From contig JACRCD010000031.1 in assembly GCA_016219175.1 (NCBI GenBank), positions 1 to 36,217 of the forward strand: a stretch of 36,217 bases of DNA, given 5' to 3'. The notes under the pieces are model-generated. The model was given only the letters and a program-made list of their open reading frames with translations. It had not been told where the DNA came from and ran no database searches. Positions 19,386 through 27,899 of the stretch are shown here, piece by piece; the stretch's first letter is position 1; every line of letters starts with the position of its first letter. Source of the DNA: Deltaproteobacteria bacterium. GTDB taxonomy: Bacteria > Desulfobacterota > Desulfobulbia > Desulfobulbales > SURF-16. The position numbers were made by a program, and so were the translations under genes.

Positions 19386-22300
19386 ATGACCGTCATCCTC
19401 CACAGCAACTTCGCCCATCTCGAAGAGCACGATAAACAGCTCGTCCGTTTAGGCCTGCTTGCGGAGCGCTATTTCGCGGACGATCCCAACACCTCCCTGC
19501 TCAAGCTCCGCCAGCTGACAGAACTGCTGGCCCAACACGTGGCGAGCAGGATCGGGCTCTACGTCTCGACAGAGGAGTCACAATACGAGTTGATCCGCCG
19601 CCTGCAGGACCAGGGTATCCTGTCTCGCGACATCGCCCAACTCTTTAGCGAAGTTCGCCGGGCCGGCAACGCCGCCAACCACGGCCTGGCCGGAAACCAC
19701 CGCACCGCGCTGGCTGCCTTAAAGATTAGCTGGCAACTGGGCGTCTGGTTCCATCGTACCTTCAAGGATCCCGGATTCAAATCAGGTCCGTTCATTCCAC
19801 CCCAGCCACCCGTGGAAGAATCGGCCGATTTACACAGTGAGCTCGGCCGCCTCAACCTGGAACTCGCAACCTACCGGGCGGCGCATCACGAGGCGGCGCA
19901 GCAACTGGAATCCATGGGCGCCAAGCTGCGCGAGGCACACGACGAGCAGACGTTCTGGGAACAGTTGGCCCAAGAGGCCGAGAACGCCAAGGTCGCTCTT
20001 GCTGCCCAACTGGCAACGCTCCAGGCGCAATCAGCTTCCCAGCCCAAAGCGCACATCGCCGCCCTTATGACGGCAGCCAACACCGCCTCCGCGGCCGTTC
20101 ATCTGGACGAGGCCGAGACGCGCAAACTGATCGATGCGCAATTGCGGCAGGCCGGTTGGCAGGCTGATTCAGAGGCCTTCAAATATTCCGCCGGGACTCG
20201 CCCCGAAAAGGGCAAGAATTTTGCCATCGCCGAATGGCCCACCGCCAGCGGTCCTGCCGACTATGTCCTGTTCGTGGGGCTTACACCCATGGCCACAGTG
20301 GAGGCCAAACGCAAGAACACGGATGTCTCCAGTGCCCTGCAACAGGCCAAACGATACAGCCGTGGCTTTACCGCGAGCGAAGACACCATTCTGCACGCCG
20401 AGAATTGGGGAGACGAGAATGAATACCGCCTGCCCTTCATTTTTTCCTCGAACGGCCGGCCCTATCTGCGTCAGCTCGCCACCAAGAGCGGCGTCTGGTT
20501 CTGCGATCTGCGCCGGCCGGACAACCTTGGCCATGTGCTGGATGGTTGGTACACGCCGGAGGGGCTCACCTCCCTGCTCAAGCGTGACGAGACGGCTGCC
20601 GATGAACAGCTCAAGAAAGAGCCCTTCAATTATGGTTTTCCGCTCCGTTATTACCAACAGGCCGCAATCCAGGCGGCGGAGACCGCCATCGCTATGGGCC
20701 AACGCGAGATGCTCCTCGCCATGGCCACCGGCACCGGCAAGACCAAAACCTGCATCGCCCTCATCTATCGCCTGCTCAAGACCCGGCGTTTCCGCCGTGT
20801 CCTCTTTCTGGTCGACCGCTCGGCCCTCGGCGAACAGGCCGTCAATGCCTTTAAGGATACACGCATGGAAAGCCTGCAAACCTTCGCCGACGTTTTCGGT
20901 ATCAAGGAACTGGACGAGCAGGCCCCGGATACCGACACCGCCGTGCATATTGCCACGGTGCAGGGCATGGTCCAGCGCGTGCTCTACGCGGGTGAAGATG
21001 CCGTGCCGCCGCCCGTCGACCGCTATGACTGCATCGTCGTCGATGAGTGCCACCGTGGCTATCTGCTCGACCGTGAACTTTCAGACACGGAACTCGCCTT
21101 CCGCAGCTTCGAGGATTACATCTCCAAGTACCGGCGGGTACTGGACTACTTCGACGCCGCCAAGGTCGGCCTCACCGCTACCCCGGCCCTGCATACCACC
21201 CAGATCTTCGGGCCGCCGATTTACAACTACAGTTACCGCGAGGCGGTGATCGACGGCTATCTGGTCGACCACGAACCGCCGGTGCAGATCAAGACGCAAC
21301 TCGCAACAAACGGCATCACCTGGAAGGTTGGCGAGGAGGTGCAGGTCTATGACACGCACCGCAACCAGGTCGATCTCTTCAACACCCCGGACGAGATCAA
21401 GATCGAAGTCGAGGGCTTCAACCGCAAGGTCATTACCGAACCGTTCAACCGCGTGATCTGTGGTTACCTGGCCCGTGAGCTTGACCCGGCGTCACGCCAG
21501 AAGACCCTGATTTTCTGCGCCACCGACGCTCATGCCGATCTGGTTGTCGATCTCTTGAAGCAGGACTTCCGTGACCACTACGGCAGCGTCGAGGATGACG
21601 CGGTCATCAAGATCACCGGCACCGCCGACAAACCGCTGCAACTGATCCGCCGTTACAAGAACGAACGGAATCCCAACGTCGCCGTCACCGTTGATCTGCT
21701 CACCACCGGCGTTGATGTGCCCGAGATCTGCAACCTGGTCTTCCTGCGCCGGGTGAACAGCCGCATCCTGTTTGATCAGATGCTGGGCCGCGCCACCCGT
21801 CTGTGCGAGGAGATCGGCAAGGAAACCTTCCGCATCTTCGACGCGGTACGGATCTATGAAGATCTGCAGGATATCACTGCCATGCGGCCGGTGGTGGTCA
21901 ACCCCTCGTTCACCTTCAGCCAGCTGGCCGCCGAGCTTATCGGGGTATGCGGAGACGAGGAACGCGCCTTGGTGCGTGACCAGTTCGTGGCCAAACTCCA
22001 GCGTAAGAAACGCCATCTTGACGAAACCGCAGCCCGCGACTTCGAGACCTGCGCCGGCATGCCGCTGGACGCCTTTATCCGGAAATTGCGCACTATGCCG
22101 CTTACCGACGTCGCGGCCTGGTTCACGGAGAACCAGAACTTGAGCGAGATCCTCGATCGCCAGGGAGAGGGGCGCGGCCAGCCCATGTTCATCTCCGGCC
22201 ACCCGGACCACCTGCTCAGCACCGAACACGGCTATGGGCAGGCCGAACGGCCCGAGGACTATCTCAAGGCCTTTACCAACTTCATCAACAGTCATCGCAA

Positions 22301-22763
22301 CGACATCCCGGCGCTGCTCACCGTCCTCACCCGGCCACGCGAACTGACCCGCAAGCAACTGCGCGAGTTGGCACTTGAACTGGACAGGGCCGGTTTCAGC
22401 GAGGCCAACCTCGCCACGGCCTGGCGCGAGATGACCAACCAGGACATTGCCGCCCGCATTGTCGGCTACATCCGCCAGGCCGCCATCGGGGACGTCCTGC
22501 TCCCTTACGAGCAAAGGGTGGACAATGCCCTGCGCAAGATGCTTGCCTCACGGGCCTGGACCGTCCCCCAGCGCCAGTGGTTGAAGCGGATCGGGGCACA
22601 GACCAAGGCCAACCTCATTGTCGACCGGGCCGCCCTTGATGATCCCGATCTGGTCTTCAAACGCGAAGGCGGCGGTTTTGCCCGGCTCGACCGCATCTTC
22701 GACGGCGAACTGACCCAGGTGCTCGACACCTTCAACGAATCTCTCTGGCAGACGGCTGCCTGA
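19386..22763 (+). CDS. hsdR: Type I restriction enzyme, endonuclease/translocase subunit R
   Basis: A 1125-aa HsdR. In order: an N-terminal DUF4145-like helical domain with RAGNAANH (about residues 97-104), a coiled coil (about 140-220), the nuclease PD-(D/E)xK site with ADYVLF and VEAKRK (about 290-306), then an SF2 motor with Walker A ATGTGKT (about 446-452), DECH (about 551-554) and motif VI QMLGRATRL. With HsdM and HsdS it cuts unmodified DNA far from the recognition site after ATP-driven translocation. The layout is like EcoEI-type enzymes. It opens the island, 191 bp after nspC; the ribosome site is weak. All key motifs look intact. Confidence 0.96.
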   Translation: MTVILHSNFAHLEEHDKQLVRLGLLAERYFADDPNTSLLKLRQLTELLAQHVASRIGLYVSTEESQYELIRRLQDQGILSRDIAQLFSEVRRAGNAANHGLAGNHRTALAALKISWQLGVWFHRTFKDPGFKSGPFIPPQPPVEESADLHSELGRLNLELATYRAAHHEAAQQLESMGAKLREAHDEQTFWEQLAQEAENAKVALAAQLATLQAQSASQPKAHIAALMTAANTASAAVHLDEAETRKLIDAQLRQAGWQADSEAFKYSAGTRPEKGKNFAIAEWPTASGPADYVLFVGLTPMATVEAKRKNTDVSSALQQAKRYSRGFTASEDTILHAENWGDENEYRLPFIFSSNGRPYLRQLATKSGVWFCDLRRPDNLGHVLDGWYTPEGLTSLLKRDETAADEQLKKEPFNYGFPLRYYQQAAIQAAETAIAMGQREMLLAMATGTGKTKTCIALIYRLLKTRRFRRVLFLVDRSALGEQAVNAFKDTRMESLQTFADVFGIKELDEQAPDTDTAVHIATVQGMVQRVLYAGEDAVPPPVDRYDCIVVDECHRGYLLDRELSDTELAFRSFEDYISKYRRVLDYFDAAKVGLTATPALHTTQIFGPPIYNYSYREAVIDGYLVDHEPPVQIKTQLATNGITWKVGEEVQVYDTHRNQVDLFNTPDEIKIEVEGFNRKVITEPFNRVICGYLARELDPASRQKTLIFCATDAHADLVVDLLKQDFRDHYGSVEDDAVIKITGTADKPLQLIRRYKNERNPNVAVTVDLLTTGVDVPEICNLVFLRRVNSRILFDQMLGRATRLCEEIGKETFRIFDAVRIYEDLQDITAMRPVVVNPSFTFSQLAAELIGVCGDEERALVRDQFVAKLQRKKRHLDETAARDFETCAGMPLDAFIRKLRTMPLTDVAAWFTENQNLSEILDRQGEGRGQPMFISGHPDHLLSTEHGYGQAERPEDYLKAFTNFINSHRNDIPALLTVLTRPRELTRKQLRELALELDRAGFSEANLATAWREMTNQDIAARIVGYIRQAAIGDVLLPYEQRVDNALRKMLASRAWTVPQRQWLKRIGAQTKANLIVDRAALDDPDLVFKREGGGFARLDRIFDGELTQVLDTFNESLWQTAA

Positions 22764-22781: not shown

Positions 22782-24254
22782 ATGAGCACCATCACCCACG
22801 ACATCGTCGCCAAACTCTGGAACCTCTGCAACGTCCTGAAGGACGACGGAGTCACCTACCACCAGTATGTGACCGAGCTGACCTATCTGCTCTTCCTCAA
22901 AATGGCTAAAGAAACCGGCACCGAAGAGCAGATCCCCGCCGGCTACCGCTGGGACGACCTCGAAGCCAAGGCCGCCCCCAACCGGCTGGAGCATTACAAA
23001 TTTACCCTGATCCACCTGGGAACCAACGGCTCCACCCTGGTGCAGGAGATCTTTGCCAACGCAAGCTCCTTTATCAAGAAGCCCGCCACCCTCTCCACCC
23101 TGGTGGCCGAAATCGACAAGCTCGACTGGTACAGCGCCCGCCAAGAGGGCCTGGGCGACCTCTACGAAGGCTTGCTGGAGAAGAACGCCAACGAGAAGAA
23201 ATCCGGCGCCGGCCAGTACTTCACCCCGCGCCCCTTGATCGACAGCATGGTGGCGATGATGCAGCCCCAGCTTACCGATATCATCCAGGACCCGGCCGCC
23301 GGCACCGGCGGCTTTCTCATCTCCGCCAGCCGCTATCTCCGCAAGCACCACGACATTACTGGGCTCACCGAGGATAAGCAGAGACGCTTTTACACCAAGA
23401 CCTTCTTCGGCATGGAACACGTCCAGGACACTCACCGCCTGGCCTTGATGAATTTGATGCTGCACGGGCTGGACTCCAATCCCAACGGGGCCGGTATCCG
23501 CTACGGCGATACCCTATCACCCGAGGGTGAGGCTTTGCCCAAGGCGACCCTCATCCTCACCAACCCACCCTTTGGCACCAAGAAGGGCGGGGGGCTCCCC
23601 AGCCGTACCGACTTCACCTTTCCCACCAGCAACAAACAGTTCTGCTTTCTGCAGCACATCTACCGGGGCCTGAAACCAGGCGGCCGCGCCGCCGTGGTCC
23701 TGCCCGGCAACGTGCTTTTCGAGGGCAATATCGGCCGCCAGATCCGCGCCGACCTCATGGACAAGTGCAATCTGCACACCATTCTGCGGCTGCCAACCGG
23801 TATTTTCTACGCCCAGGGGGTCAAGACCAACGTCCTCTTCTTCAGCCGGGGCGCGACGGACAAGGGCAACACCAAGGAGGTATGGGTTTACGATCTCAGG
23901 GCTAACATGCCGCAGTATGGTAAGCGCACCGTGCTTACCCGCGCCCATTTTGCCGAGTTCGAGGCGGCCTATGGCGACGACCCCCTCGGCTCGCCCAAGA
24001 GCTTGCGGAAACGCCGGGACACCGGCGAGGCCGGCCGTTTTCGCCGCTTCACCCGGGAAGAGATCGCCAGCCGTGGCGACTCCCTCGACATCGCCTGGCT
24101 CAAGGACGACAGCGACACGAACAACGACGAACTGCCCGAACCCGCTATCCTGGCCCGCGAGGCGCTGATTGAACTCGACGCGGCCATGGAGGAACTGCGG
24201 GGGATTCTGGAGGAGTTGGGCGAAGATGTGCTGGAAGAGGAGTCGGGCATATGA
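22782..24254 (+). CDS. hsdM: Type I DNA methyltransferase subunit M
   Basis: A 490-residue N6-adenine methyltransferase. The N-terminal helical domain (TYHQYVTELTYLLFLKM) is followed by GQYFTPRPL, the AdoMet-binding DPAAGTGGF (about residues 170-178) and the catalytic NPPF (about 260-263). With HsdS it methylates the recognition sequence and protects the host. AAGGAA lies upstream, 18 bp after hsdR, so both are likely on one transcript. Full length, no damage seen. Confidence 0.96.
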   Translation: MSTITHDIVAKLWNLCNVLKDDGVTYHQYVTELTYLLFLKMAKETGTEEQIPAGYRWDDLEAKAAPNRLEHYKFTLIHLGTNGSTLVQEIFANASSFIKKPATLSTLVAEIDKLDWYSARQEGLGDLYEGLLEKNANEKKSGAGQYFTPRPLIDSMVAMMQPQLTDIIQDPAAGTGGFLISASRYLRKHHDITGLTEDKQRRFYTKTFFGMEHVQDTHRLALMNLMLHGLDSNPNGAGIRYGDTLSPEGEALPKATLILTNPPFGTKKGGGLPSRTDFTFPTSNKQFCFLQHIYRGLKPGGRAAVVLPGNVLFEGNIGRQIRADLMDKCNLHTILRLPTGIFYAQGVKTNVLFFSRGATDKGNTKEVWVYDLRANMPQYGKRTVLTRAHFAEFEAAYGDDPLGSPKSLRKRRDTGEAGRFRRFTREEIASRGDSLDIAWLKDDSDTNNDELPEPAILAREALIELDAAMEELRGILEELGEDVLEEESGI

Positions 24255-24357: not shown

Positions 24358-25458
24358 ATGAAAACACCGCTTGGCATTCCCGCCACCCTTGGCGCCGACT
24401 CGCTTCACAGCGAACTCCGTTCCCTGATCTCCGCCAGTCGCCAGCGCCTGGCTGGCGCGGTCAACGCCGAACTTACCCGCCTCTATTGGGCCGTGGGCGA
24501 ACGGTTACACCGCGAGGTGCTGGGCGGTGAACGCGCCGCTTACGGCAGCATGGTCATTGATCACCTGGGCACTCGTCTTGCCGCCGAGTTCGGCCGGGGT
24601 TTCGAGGCCAAGAACCTGCACCGCATGGTTCAGTTCGCCCAGGCCTTCCCGGACGCGGAAATTGTCGCGACACTGTCACGACAATTGAACTGGAGCCACA
24701 TTGTTACTCTGCTTCCCCTCAAAGACTCCGAAGCGCGTCGCTTCTATGCTCAGGCCATTGCCACGGAAGGCTGGAGTGTGCGCGAACTGCGCCGACGCAT
24801 TGAGCAAAAGACCTTCGAGCGCACCGCCCTCGCCAGCAGTCAGGGTACGGGCATCGACCAGGCCCTGGCCCACACCGAGAGCAGCGGCCAACTGAGCCCT
24901 GGCCTGGTCTTCAAAGACCCCTACTTTCTTGATTTTTTGGGCCTGCGCCAGGGCTATGACGAGGCCGATCTGGAGAACGCCATCCTGCGCCAGCTTGAGG
25001 CCTTCATCCTGGAGTTGGGCCGGGGCTTTGCCTTTGTCGAGCGCCAGAAACGGATGGTCATCGACGGTGACGACTTTTATCTCGACTTGCTTTTTTTCCA
25101 CCGCCGCCTGCGCCGTTTGGTGGCGGTGGAACTGAAGCTTGGCCGCTTCAAGGCCGGCCACAAGGGGCAGATGGAGCTCTACCTGAAATGGTTGGACAAA
25201 TACGAGCGCCAGCCCAATGAGGAGGCCCCCATCGGCCTCATCCTCTGCGCCGAGGCCAGCCGCGAGCAGGTGGAACTCTTGCAGATGCAGCAGGACGGCA
25301 TCACCGTGGCCGAGTACTGGACCGAACTGCCGCCCAAGGAGGAGTTGGAGCGCCACCTCCATCAGGCCTTGATTGAGGCCCGGGAGAGGTTGGCGGCCCG
25401 TCGGGTGCTGATGGCGCCGGGACGTGCGGGTGATGAGCTTGGGGAGGGGGAGGGATGA
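24358..25458 (+). CDS. DUF1016/YhcG-type PD-(D/E)xK nuclease-domain protein
   Basis: The 366-aa product has the DUF1016 N-terminal helical region (LTRLYWAVGERLHREVL, then NLHRMVQFAQAFPD) and a C-terminal YhcG-like nuclease domain, with DDFYLDLLFFHRRLRRLV and VELKLGRFK (Asp ... ELK) forming the presumed metal site. Proteins of this family are often embedded in type I restriction loci; their role is unsettled, with a restriction, DNA-repair or regulatory part suggested. It lies between hsdM and hsdS, has GGGGAGG upstream, and ends in an ATGA overlap with hsdS, so it is expressed as part of the locus. Confidence 0.88.
   Translation: MKTPLGIPATLGADSLHSELRSLISASRQRLAGAVNAELTRLYWAVGERLHREVLGGERAAYGSMVIDHLGTRLAAEFGRGFEAKNLHRMVQFAQAFPDAEIVATLSRQLNWSHIVTLLPLKDSEARRFYAQAIATEGWSVRELRRRIEQKTFERTALASSQGTGIDQALAHTESSGQLSPGLVFKDPYFLDFLGLRQGYDEADLENAILRQLEAFILELGRGFAFVERQKRMVIDGDDFYLDLLFFHRRLRRLVAVELKLGRFKAGHKGQMELYLKWLDKYERQPNEEAPIGLILCAEASREQVELLQMQQDGITVAEYWTELPPKEELERHLHQALIEARERLAARRVLMAPGRAGDELGEGEG
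24661..24687. repeat. Dyad element, copy inside DUF1016 gene
   Basis: Second copy of the 27-base element, with arms ATTGTCG and CGACAAT, at codons 102-110 of the DUF1016 gene, where it encodes IVATLSRQL. See the leader copy. Confidence 0.55.
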
Positions 25459-27083
25459 GTGAATTGCCTCAAGGTTGGGCGCCAGCTACGCTCGGGCAGC
25501 TTGCAGGGGGTGGACAGTACGGTTGGACCACAAAAGCGACCGACAGCGGAACGACAAAATTCCTTCGTACCACTGACATCACGAAGGGCTCGATTATATG
25601 GGATCGTGTGCCCTATTGCCACGAAACACCCTCTGCCGACGATAAATACAGACTACATAGTGGAGACATCCTTATCTCACGGGCCGGATCAGTGGGCTTC
25701 AGTGTCTTACTCGAAACCATTCCATATCCAACGGTGTTCGCTTCGTATTTAATTCGCTTTTTACCGGACTCAGAGCAGGTTGTTCCTCAATATCTCGCCC
25801 ACTTCCTCCGCAGCCCGAGCTATTGGAACCAGATCGCAGGAGTTTCTGCCGGCATTGCCCTTTCAAATGTGAACGCTACAAAACTGGCGGAAGTTGCGGT
25901 TCCTCTCGCCCCCATAAACGAACAGAAGCGCATCGCCGACAAGCTCGACGCGGTCTTGGCGCGGGTGGATGCCTGTCGCGAGCGACTCGACCACATGCCC
26001 GCCATCCTCAAACGCTTCCGCCAAGCCGTCCTCGCCGCCGCTACCTCCGGCACGCTGACCGAGGAGTGGCGGAATAAGAAGCAGCTACCGGACAGTTGGC
26101 CGGAAGTTTCGCTCAGGGATGTTGCACACGATTTTTCCTACGGCTCTGCTGCAAAATCTGCCAAACTTGGCACAGTTCCCGTGCTGCGTATGGGTAACAT
26201 CCAAGATGGCCTTCTCGACTGGACGGACTTGGTCTTTACTTCCGATGCTGCGGAAATTTCAAAATACTCGCTAGCACCTGGGGATGTGCTTTTTAACAGA
26301 ACTAACAGCCCAGAACTGGTTGGCAAGACAGCAATTTATCGTGGCGAACGTCCTGCGGTGTATGCCGGCTATCTGATACGGGTTCGATGCACGAATCGAC
26401 TACTCCCTGACTATTTGAACTACTGTTTGAACAGTCCTGCGGGACGGGACTACCGCTGGCGCGTTAAATCGGACGGCGTCAGCCAGTCCAACATCAACGC
26501 AAAAAAGCTGGCGGCCTTCACCTTTGTACTGCCAACAGTCGAAGAACAACACGAAATCGTCCGCCGCGTCGAAGCCCTTTTCACCTATGCCGACCGTCTC
26601 GAAGCACGCAACGCCACGGCCCGCGCCCAGGTCGACCGTCTCACCCCCGCCCTACTCGCCAAGGCCTTTCGCGGTGAGCTGGTGGAACAGGACCCCAACG
26701 ATGAACCGGCCAGCGAATTGCTGGCGCGCCTCCAGGCCGCCCGCGCCGAGGAAGTGGCTAAACCGAGAAAGCACAAAACACTGAGGAGAGCCAAAGTGAA
26801 GACGACAATCACCGAAGAGGCGGTCAAAGCGATCATTGCTCGTCTGCCGACACCGAGCTTTAGCTTTGATGATCTGCGCAGTCAGGTCTCTGGTGACTAT
26901 GAAACGTTGAAAGACGTCATTTTCAACCTGCTCACCGACCCCACGTCTGGCATTACGCAAGTCTTTGACGTGCAAATGAGCGAAATGCGTTTTCAGCGAA
27001 CGCGACCACGAAACTGCTCCGGTTGCATATTGTCGCGGCGAAGACCTGTGGCGGTCTGCTCGATGGCATGGACATTTGGCTAA
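25455..27083 (+). CDS. hsdS: Type I specificity subunit S, with C-terminal read-through
   Basis: A 542-residue HsdS with two target-recognition domains and two conserved spacers. TRD1 covers about residues 1-155, spacer INEQKRIADKLDAVLARVDACR; TRD2 about 215-365, then VEEQHEIVRRVEALF and the helix to LLARLQAARAEE. It fixes the bipartite DNA target of the complex. The ATG overlaps the DUF1016 stop (ATGA). The last 24 residues, from R519, are unlike any HsdS tail and read into the next gene in the wrong frame. A TGA at codon 519 would give 518 residues, so the present end probably reflects a lost stop codon. Function may be unaffected. Confidence 0.9.
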   Translation: MSELPQGWAPATLGQLAGGGQYGWTTKATDSGTTKFLRTTDITKGSIIWDRVPYCHETPSADDKYRLHSGDILISRAGSVGFSVLLETIPYPTVFASYLIRFLPDSEQVVPQYLAHFLRSPSYWNQIAGVSAGIALSNVNATKLAEVAVPLAPINEQKRIADKLDAVLARVDACRERLDHMPAILKRFRQAVLAAATSGTLTEEWRNKKQLPDSWPEVSLRDVAHDFSYGSAAKSAKLGTVPVLRMGNIQDGLLDWTDLVFTSDAAEISKYSLAPGDVLFNRTNSPELVGKTAIYRGERPAVYAGYLIRVRCTNRLLPDYLNYCLNSPAGRDYRWRVKSDGVSQSNINAKKLAAFTFVLPTVEEQHEIVRRVEALFTYADRLEARNATARAQVDRLTPALLAKAFRGELVEQDPNDEPASELLARLQAARAEEVAKPRKHKTLRRAKVKTTITEEAVKAIIARLPTPSFSFDDLRSQVSGDYETLKDVIFNLLTDPTSGITQVFDVQMSEMRFQRTRPRNCSGCILSRRRPVAVCSMAWTFG

Positions 27084-27514
27084 GGAGTCCATCCGTCGAG
27101 GTCGCTGGGTTTGAACCGCTTTGCCTGATCGGACCAAATGGTGCTGGTAAGTCCCAATTTCTGCAAGTGGTGGCCGAGATGTTTCAATCCATCCTGCATG
27201 AGACCATTGGCCGCGAGGAACGAGTGGAAGGCAATTCACATCTACAGTTCGAGGTCGAATACCTGATCAAACCGAGAGATAGTGACAAGGCTGTCCATGT
27301 CCGAGCCTCCCGCCTGGCGCAGGGTAAAAGAAAGCCCATAGTGGTAATCAGCAAGAAAGAAGATGAGGAGTGGATAGAGTGTGCTGATCCGCAAGCACCA
27401 TCGACAGTTGCCTTGCTGCCGGCAAAAATTGTCGGATGGGAGGAGCAGCATAATGGCCATCTGGCTCATTCGCTCGGACCCTTCAGGCCAGATCCTCGCC
27501 GGTGGTGGTCATGA
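27008..27514 (+). pseudogene. Restriction-associated AAA ATPase, N-terminal fragment
   Basis: The frame encodes KLLRLHIVAAKTCGGLLDGM, then the Walker A loop GPNGAGKSQF, then FEVEYLIKPRDSD. This resembles the beginning of AAA ATPases found downstream of hsdS in other type I loci (called restriction system-associated AAA family ATPases, as I recall). Such proteins are several hundred residues; here homology ends by about residue 155 where the DNA meets the nikR 3' end (27483), and the frame runs 10 codons antisense into nikR. Walker B and the rest are gone. The expected start is ACG at 27008; the nearest usable start is TTG at 27023. A decayed remnant marking the island's right border. Confidence 0.75.
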
Positions 27515-27899
27515 CCAGTTTGCCGTGTTTGACCCCTTTGACGCCGATCAGTTCGTCGGCTATCTGTTTCACTTCATGGGCCGCCCCGCGCACCACCAGG
27601 ACTTCGAGGCAGTTATGGGCATCCAGATGCACATGCAGGGAGGAAATGATCCGGTCGTGGTGGCCGTGCTGGTGCTCCGTCAGCTTGTCGGAAAGATCCC
27701 GCACGTGGTGGTTGTAAATGAGGGTGACGGTGCCGATGGCCTTCTCTTCCGATTCGCACTTGTTCTCCACCAGCGAGGCGCGGATGAGATCGCGAATCGC
27801 CTCGGAACGATTGGTGTATCGTTTCCGGTCAATCAGTTGATCAAAATCAACCAGCAGTTTTTCATCGAGCGAAATCCCGAATCTGACGGTTTTCCCCAT
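27483..27899 (-). CDS. nikR: Nickel-responsive transcriptional regulator NikR
   Basis: A 138-aa ribbon-helix-helix repressor. The N-terminal DNA-binding part is [19 protein letters not shown]; the C-terminal ACT-like domain has the nickel ligands in QHGHHD, LHVHLD (His89, His91) and Cys97. With Ni(II) bound it represses nickel import. I start at 27899 because AGAGG lies 7 bases upstream; the ATGs at 27905 and 27917 are too close to or beyond that site. It points away from nikMN, whose promoter contains a NikR box. The RM island abuts its 3' end. Confidence 0.95.

What the first reader, a model, noticed from the sequence alone, without database searches (positions are those of the whole stretch)
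27006..27013. One base change can explain loss of both the hsdS stop and the ATPase start
Bases 27006-27013 read CCACGAAA. If 27009 were T, CCATGAAA would hold an ATG for the AAA ATPase (MKLLRL...) and an overlapping TGA ending HsdS at 518 residues, the same ATGA coupling seen between DUF1016 and hsdS just upstream. The present C makes HsdS read 24 foreign residues and removes the ATPase start. As the ATPase is cut short anyway, the mutation fits decay after truncation, or it could be a sequencing error.
Basis: partly seen in the sequence, partly recalled or inferred. Interest (0 to 1): 0.6.

Follow-up and report, generated by a model that had tools for sequence, protein, structure and literature searches.

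The report
Broken hsdS–ATPase gene junction
At the end of a bacterial DNA-restriction operon, one base differs from every intact relative examined, so one gene runs on 24 residues too long and its cut-short neighbour has no normal start; it is a piece of ordinary gene decay, but it pointed to a widely shared pair of linked defence-type genes that this operon seems to have lost.

Summary
Bases 27006-27013 read CCACGAAA. In 34 loci that encode the same HsdS-ATPase junction (33 from a genome scan, one plasmid), the codon aligned with 27008-27010 is ATG (28) or GTG (6). In 32 of 34, a TGA beginning at that codon's second base ends HsdS; in the other two the stop codon begins 2 and 5 bases before it. 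The middle base is T in all 34 and C here. So in this assembly one substitution explains the lost start and a 24-residue HsdS extension that none of the 34 has.

The ATPase is a fragment: homology stops at 27436, about 143 of about 540 residues. Homologues are followed at once by a gene with an HNH-type motif (33 of 33 testable), not seen here. The hsdR, hsdM and hsdS core is open and full length. The fragment shows little other damage (0 of 35 conserved columns changed, no stop or frameshift). Loss of function thus looks recent; sequencing error, chance decay and selected silencing cannot be separated without reads or a sister strain.

The lost pair distantly resembles PtuA-PtuB. A PrrC-like guard role for it is a hypothesis only. 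The finding itself is ordinary.

The parts
19386..22763 (+). hsdR, type I restriction subunit, 1125 aa, full length
   Evidence: NCBIfam NF008521 1583.9 bits (cut-off 729), model 3-1122 of 1123
22782..24254 (+). hsdM, type I methyltransferase subunit, 490 aa, full length
   Evidence: Pfam PF02384 1.1e-72; match in 33 of 34 homologue loci, up to 79% identical
24358..25458 (+). DUF1016/YhcG nuclease-like gene between hsdM and hsdS; overlaps the hsdS start by ATGA
   Evidence: Pfam YhcG_C 8.3e-48 and DUF1016_N 1.5e-44; overlap
25455..27083 (+). hsdS as it now reads, 542 aa
   Evidence: ORF; two Methylase_S stretches
26814..26999 (+). C-terminal domain of HsdS, predicted winged helix, alignable in the 34 homologues that carry the ATPase
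   Evidence: AlphaFold2 on a 34-row alignment, mean pLDDT 74.8 overall, 10-residue means 86-90 from residue 41 of the 100-residue query, 73 for residues 31-40; weak Foldseek matches, best E 0.098, none below 0.001
27006..27013 (+). the site of the finding: CCACGAAA, homologous to the stop/start overlap of hsdS and the ATPase
   Evidence: 34 homologue loci compared
27009..27080 (+). 24 extra HsdS codons read from the ATPase coding region in another frame
27008..27436 (+). remaining 5' part of the restriction-associated AAA ATPase gene (TIGR04435-like), no standard start codon
   Evidence: TIGR04435 58.6 bits over model 2-173 of 568; alignment with 34 homologues ends after KIVG
27437..27482 (+). 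46 bases of unassigned origin between the ATPase break and the nikR stop
   Evidence: similarity to the homologues' next motif not above shuffles, 127 of 500
27483..27899 (-). nikR, nickel-responsive regulator, the neighbour at the break
   Evidence: NF003381 222.5 bits (cut-off 105); 90-93% identical in 5 congeners

Best explanation
This is the 3' end of a type I restriction-modification operon (hsdR-hsdM-DUF1016-hsdS). By homology it once continued into an overlapping AAA ATPase gene and a gene with an HNH-type motif. In relatives the HsdS stop and the ATPase start share an RTGA overlap, so a ribosome ending HsdS can restart on the ATPase (mechanism inferred from the layout). Here the downstream module was lost: the ATPase breaks off at 27436, neither its remaining two thirds nor the HNH-type gene follows, and nikR comes 46 bases later. 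A single substitution at 27009 then, or earlier, removed both signals. The result is a full-length HsdR/HsdM/HsdS core whose HsdS carries 24 extra residues after its C-terminal winged-helix-like domain, and a 143-residue ATPase remnant that is probably not translated (inferred).
For: Junction comparison: start codon ATG/GTG at the homologous place in 34 of 34, TGA overlap in 32 of 34. ATPase length 490-545 aa in the 34 homologues against about 143 homologous residues here. In the own genome TIGR04435 matched only as model 2-173 (E 1e-10, 3 of 22 candidates scored), and neither the C-terminal 396 residues of L016's ATPase nor the HNH profile matched at E 0.01; these two empty answers have no positive control. 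HNH-type gene directly after the ATPase in 33 of 33 loci with enough sequence. hsdR and hsdM full length by family models. nikR is conserved in 5 congeners, but homology ends at the nikR stop.
Against: No reads and no second strain were available, so the base itself rests on one assembly of 97 contigs. The remnant is otherwise little damaged (0 of 35 conserved columns changed). Under neutral decay only about 2.5% of first visible lesions would fall on the start codon, a figure that is post hoc because the start loss was what drew attention. L004, more distant, has no overlap, and 2 of 34 have another stop position. Translation of the remnant was not tested.
Confidence: 0.8

Rival explanations
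1. The C at 27009 is a sequencing or assembly error; the strain really has the usual stop/start overlap, with a truncated ATPase downstream.
For: Single assembly of 97 contigs; the rest of the remnant looks little damaged.
Against: The place is no long homopolymer; consensus substitution errors are rare in most assemblies (general knowledge, not tested). The truncation remains in any case.
Confidence: 0.13
2. The start was lost because silencing the remnant was favoured: a 143-residue fragment with an intact Walker A (GPNGAGKS; motif name recalled), or an unpaired member of an ATPase-nuclease pair, was costly, and the mutation switched it off at the price of a harmless HsdS tail.
For: The start is the only lesion at a conserved position, and neutral first lesions should fall there about 2.5% of the time. 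GPNGAGKS is intact in the remnant.
Against: No evidence that the fragment is harmful; one event, noticed after the fact; indistinguishable from chance with one genome.
Confidence: 0.2
3. The remnant is still translated, from ACG at 27008, TTG at 27023, or by restart at the in-frame ATG 27068, which lies 13 bases before the new HsdS stop at 27081.
For: In-frame TTG 27023 and ATG 27068 exist, the latter close to the new HsdS stop.
Against: No Shine-Dalgarno-like sequence in the 15 bases before either (by eye); a start at 27068 would remove 20 residues conserved in homologues; the product would lack two thirds of the ATPase anyway.
Confidence: 0.05

Closest known systems
NCBIfam TIGR04435, restriction system-associated AAA family ATPase
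   Same: The remnant aligns to its N-terminal part; a full homologue (L016) scores 473.4 bits against a cut-off of 300; same place after hsdS.
   Different: The window copy scores 58.6 bits, covers model 2-173 of 568 and has no standard start codon.
Septu / PtuA-PtuB (also the effector pair of retron Eco7)
   Same: Two-gene pair of an ATPase and an HNH-type protein; the L016 ATPase scores 154 bits with a PADLOC PtuA model, and the four HNH-type proteins tested (L016, L017, L020, L032) match PtuB or related candidate models weakly.
   Different: L016 scores 35.7 bits against the NCBIfam PtuA cut-off of 500; the HNH-type proteins match no Pfam family at E 0.1 (5 tested) and no NCBIfam family at E 0.01 (4 tested); the model of L016's gave no significant fold match; the pair follows hsdS; in the window it is destroyed.
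PrrC of EcoprrI, anticodon nuclease inside a type I restriction operon
   Same: An ATPase gene lodged in a type I operon beside hsdS. Papers describe PrrC as sequestered by the restriction enzyme and activated on its inhibition (PMC3874165, PMC12707154, passages seen).
   Different: Here the ATPase and a putative nuclease are separate genes; Pfam families found for L016's ATPase are AAA_21, AAA_15, ABC_tran and SMC_N; no tRNA cleavage shown.

Membership tests
Type I restriction-modification system | R subunit with helicase and nuclease parts, full length | tested here: met
   NF008521 1583.9 bits over cut-off 729, model 3-1122 of 1123; HSDR_N, ResIII and EcoEI_R_C domains
Type I restriction-modification system | N6-adenine methyltransferase subunit | tested here: met
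   PF02384 245.4 bits over cut-off 20.4; below the TIGR00497 cut-off, 50.6 of 242.75
Type I restriction-modification system | Specificity subunit with two target recognition domains | tested here: met
   Two PF01420 stretches; below the cut-off of the best NCBIfam model, 407.8 of 662
Type I restriction-modification system | Methylates and restricts DNA | not testable with these tools
   needs methylation-aware sequencing or phage tests
TIGR04435 restriction system-associated AAA ATPase | Score over the curated cut-off (300 bits) | tested here: not met
   58.6 bits, a fragment; homologue L016 473.4 bits
TIGR04435 restriction system-associated AAA ATPase | Linkage to type I restriction genes | tested here: met
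   directly after hsdS; hsdM match in 33 of 34 loci, the 34th (L021) a short contig
Septu (PtuA-PtuB) | PtuA-type ATPase over the curated cut-off | tested here: not met
   window remnant: no NF041760 PtuA hit listed at E 0.001, best PADLOC PtuA 27.4 bits; L016 35.7 bits of cut-off 500
Septu (PtuA-PtuB) | Adjacent HNH nuclease PtuB | tested here: not met
   not found after the remnant, nor in the own genome with the HNH profile at E 0.01 (no positive control); in homologues a weakly PtuB-like HNH-type gene follows, no fold match
PrrC-type guard of a restriction system | Latent tRNA nuclease released when the restriction enzyme is inhibited | not testable with these tools
   needs bench work on an intact homologue

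The most novel reading that the evidence does not exclude
The module that this window has lost is a PtuAB-like ATPase-HNH effector pair, hard-wired to HsdS by overlapping genes and by an added C-terminal winged-helix domain on HsdS. It would act as a PrrC-like guard that fires when a phage disables the restriction enzyme. The window would then show a restriction system that shed its suicide module and silenced the remnant with one base change.
Probability: 0.2. Interest if true: 0.65.

Novelty: new member of a known kind. Interest (0 to 1): 0.3.

Why it matters
For the window alone it matters little: annotators should note that HsdS overruns the conserved junction and call the ATPase a pseudogene fragment. 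The comparison is of wider use. It shows a conserved hsdS-ATPase-HNH-type unit in many bacterial groups (among the record titles: Alphaproteobacteria, Burkholderiales, Pseudomonas, Nostoc and other cyanobacteria, Corallococcus, a Chloroflexi and a Deinococcales bin, Pelagicoccus). Its function was not found in the papers seen, and it can be tested directly.

Tried and rejected
A reading in which 27453 (GGAGGAGCAGCATAATG, MAIWLIR...) is the start of another restriction-associated gene was tried. The pattern (up to 3 mismatches) occurs once in the 22 genomes of the family, in the window itself, and a shorter one in two viral contigs, where it opens frames of 75 and 43 residues that do not resemble each other by eye. 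Rejected as unsupported.

A reading in which ATPase homology runs on to the nikR stop ([16 protein letters not shown] against YTSGDNETLSLPF) was tested against shuffles; 127 of 500 shuffles did as well (412 of 500 for the longer stretch). Rejected.

An empty-site comparison in congeners did not work. In 5 congeners the two flanks of the restriction operon were found on different contigs, and the DNA after nikR differs in each. No insertion boundary could be defined. A related hsdM (60%) in G399 sits in a locus (L087) where no ATPase of this kind is evident among the ORF beginnings listed; no family search was run there.

Whether the HsdS tail domain occurs without the ATPase could not be settled. 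The tail profile hit only the window among 390 genomes of the phylum, and tail queries found nothing in plasmids. The latter means little: the query also missed the Sphingobium plasmid, which carries a tail. The viral collection gave no ATPase relative. Distant-mode DNA searches of E. coli genomes and plasmids gave no match. The phylum search with the remnant found only the window's genome, and the first genome-contig scan found no relative. Sequence searches of solved structures gave no relative for the ATPase or the HNH-type protein and one weak hit, CagD at E 0.012, for the tail, not taken as meaningful.

Full report
What was checked. Bases 27006-27013 read CCACGAAA. HsdS (25455-27083) is 542 residues; codon 519 begins at 27009, so the present protein is 24 residues longer than one ending there. 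The frame from 27008 reads TKLLRLHIVAAKTCGGLLDG... with ACG in the first place.

Comparison with relatives. The remnant alone found no relative outside the window's own genome (395 genomes of its phylum at E 1e-10; genome contigs), but one plasmid of Sphingobium yanoikuyae encodes one (annotated). An alignment of the two used as a query found 37 loci in genome contigs. Four (L048-L051) are short weak hits and were dropped. In the remaining 33 plus the plasmid, the codon homologous to 27008-27010 is ATG in 28 and GTG in 6. In 32 of 34 a TGA begins at the second base of that codon and ends HsdS; in L032 a TAA begins 2 bases and in L034 a TGA 5 bases before the start codon. None has a longer HsdS. 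A more distant member, L004, has a 6-base gap instead of an overlap.

How much of the ATPase is left. The 34 homologues are 490-545 residues (L021, the shortest at 490, ends 104 bases before its contig's end). The window's copy aligns from codon 2 to KIVG, ending at 27436. The NCBIfam model TIGR04435 matches positions 2-173 of 568 at 58.6 bits, against a cut-off of 300. In the own genome this is the only match at E 1e-10 (3 of 22 candidates scored), and a query with the C-terminal 396 residues of L016's ATPase found nothing at E 0.01 (no positive control). The next 46 bases have no assigned origin: an apparent resemblance to the following motif is no better than shuffles (127 of 500). Then nikR ends on the other strand at 27483. 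In five congeners nikR is conserved, with at least part of the gene that follows it (cbiM-like, name recalled), but homology ends at the nikR stop and the sequence beyond differs in each.

What else is lost. In homologues the ATPase is followed by a gene with a CPFCG...LDH motif, an HNH-type signature (motif naming recalled; invariant columns). A pattern search found it in 25 of 34. Reading the eight other loci that have sequence showed it in L032, L042-L047 and, across a run of N with a change of frame, in L031. L021 ends 104 bases after the ATPase. That is 33 of 33 testable. In the 28 loci where its start was placed by rule, the gene begins between 1 base of overlap and 15 bases after the ATPase stop. 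The nuclease label rests on this motif and on weak PADLOC matches in four proteins tested; no Pfam family (5 tested, E 0.1) and no NCBIfam family (4 tested, E 0.01) matched. In the window nikR follows 46 bases after the break, and the profile of the 27 HNH-type proteins found nothing in the own genome at E 0.01 (no positive control).

State of the rest of the operon. HsdR matches NF008521 from end to end at 1583.9 bits. HsdM and DUF1016 match their families over most of their length. HsdM is up to 79% identical to the homologues and HsdR about 70% to the closest, so the operon is a normal member of this group. HsdR was seen in only 8 of 34 loci, perhaps partly because loci reach about 6 kb upstream at most (8 kb for L003); gene order may also differ. 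DUF1016 has a match in 1 of 34 (L017, 82 residues), so that insertion is unusual within the sample.

Age of the damage. Of 35 columns conserved in at least 90% of homologues, none is changed in the remnant; homologues themselves show 0 to 5. There is no internal stop or frameshift; one extra in-frame codon stands where only 2 of 34 homologues (L037, L038) have a residue. With a simple substitution model, zero such lesions bounds neutral divergence since loss of constraint at about 3.5% (95%), and only about 2.5% of first visible lesions would hit the start codon. That makes slow random decay a slightly strained account and leaves room for chance, selection against the remnant, or an error in the base. 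The order of truncation and start loss is not determined. The calculation is post hoc.

The HsdS tail. The last 100 residues of HsdS before the conserved stop were modelled with 33 homologues (the plasmid row was not eligible): residues 36-97 form helix-(short strand)-helix-helix-strand-strand, the order of a winged helix. Mean pLDDT is 74.8 and pTM 0.51 overall; ten-residue means are 86-90 from residue 41 on and 73 for 31-40. Of the 50 Foldseek matches listed, many are winged-helix proteins of the Fur, MarR or SarA kinds or Z-alpha domains (names partly recalled), others are not; the best E is 0.098 and none is below 0.001, so this is weak support. The 34 homologues with the ATPase all align over this tail (script alignment), at 19-46% identity to the window with two invariant columns. 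Whether the tail occurs without the ATPase is untested outside the window's phylum. The 24 extra residues of the window begin three residues after the last predicted strand's end, so they probably do little harm (inference).

What the lost module may do. A full homologue (L016) scores 154 bits with a PADLOC PtuA model but only 35.7 against a cut-off of 500 for NCBIfam PtuA; the HNH-type proteins match PtuB and related candidate models weakly, and the model of L016's (mean pLDDT 85.5, with 56-66 in several blocks of its presumed active region) finds no fold match in the PDB. So the pair works perhaps like Septu but is not shown to be Septu. Septu and the retron Eco7 pair cut tRNA-Tyr in phage-infected E. 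coli (PMC13096335, abstract start and passages; PMC11555353, abstract start and passages), and PrrC, encoded within type I restriction operons, is sequestered by the restriction enzyme and activated on its inhibition (PMC3874165, PMC12707154, passages). By analogy an HsdS-coupled ATPase-HNH pair could be a guard of the restriction enzyme. This is a hypothesis.

What the papers show. In the open-licence library, the family name, its accession and one stricter word set gave no paper. Three wider searches listed 3, 15 of 25 and 2 papers; no title or abstract start in those listings describes this unit. I looked at passages of six papers: the four named above, PMC10853773 and PMC8565338. Those passages do not describe it either. 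Two papers that might treat it, cited in passages seen, were not held. This does not show that the unit is undescribed.

Verdict. It is a small piece of gene decay in a known kind of operon. The conserved hsdS-ATPase-HNH-type unit seen in the relatives is the more interesting part.

Noticed in passing
L015-L047 and L003, downstream of hsdS: A conserved hsdS-AAA ATPase-HNH-type gene unit with overlapping or nearly touching genes in many bacterial groups; not described in the listings and passages seen.
   Followed up: partly
window 24358-25458: A DUF1016/YhcG nuclease-like gene sits between hsdM and hsdS and overlaps hsdS by ATGA; only 1 of 34 homologue loci has a (short) match to it.
   Followed up: no
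L031, downstream of the ATPase: The HNH-type gene is interrupted by a run of N and changes frame across it.
   Followed up: no
L004 955-1494: The frame upstream of the ATPase contains an in-frame stop at 955-957 within what looks like hsdS.
   Followed up: no
G000:C53:1771-2319 (outside the window): A second, partial hsdM-like stretch with an in-frame TGA in the same genome.
   Followed up: no
window 27437-27482: 46 bases of unassigned origin with a ribosome-site-like GGGAGGA before ATG 27453; no gene supported.
   Followed up: partly
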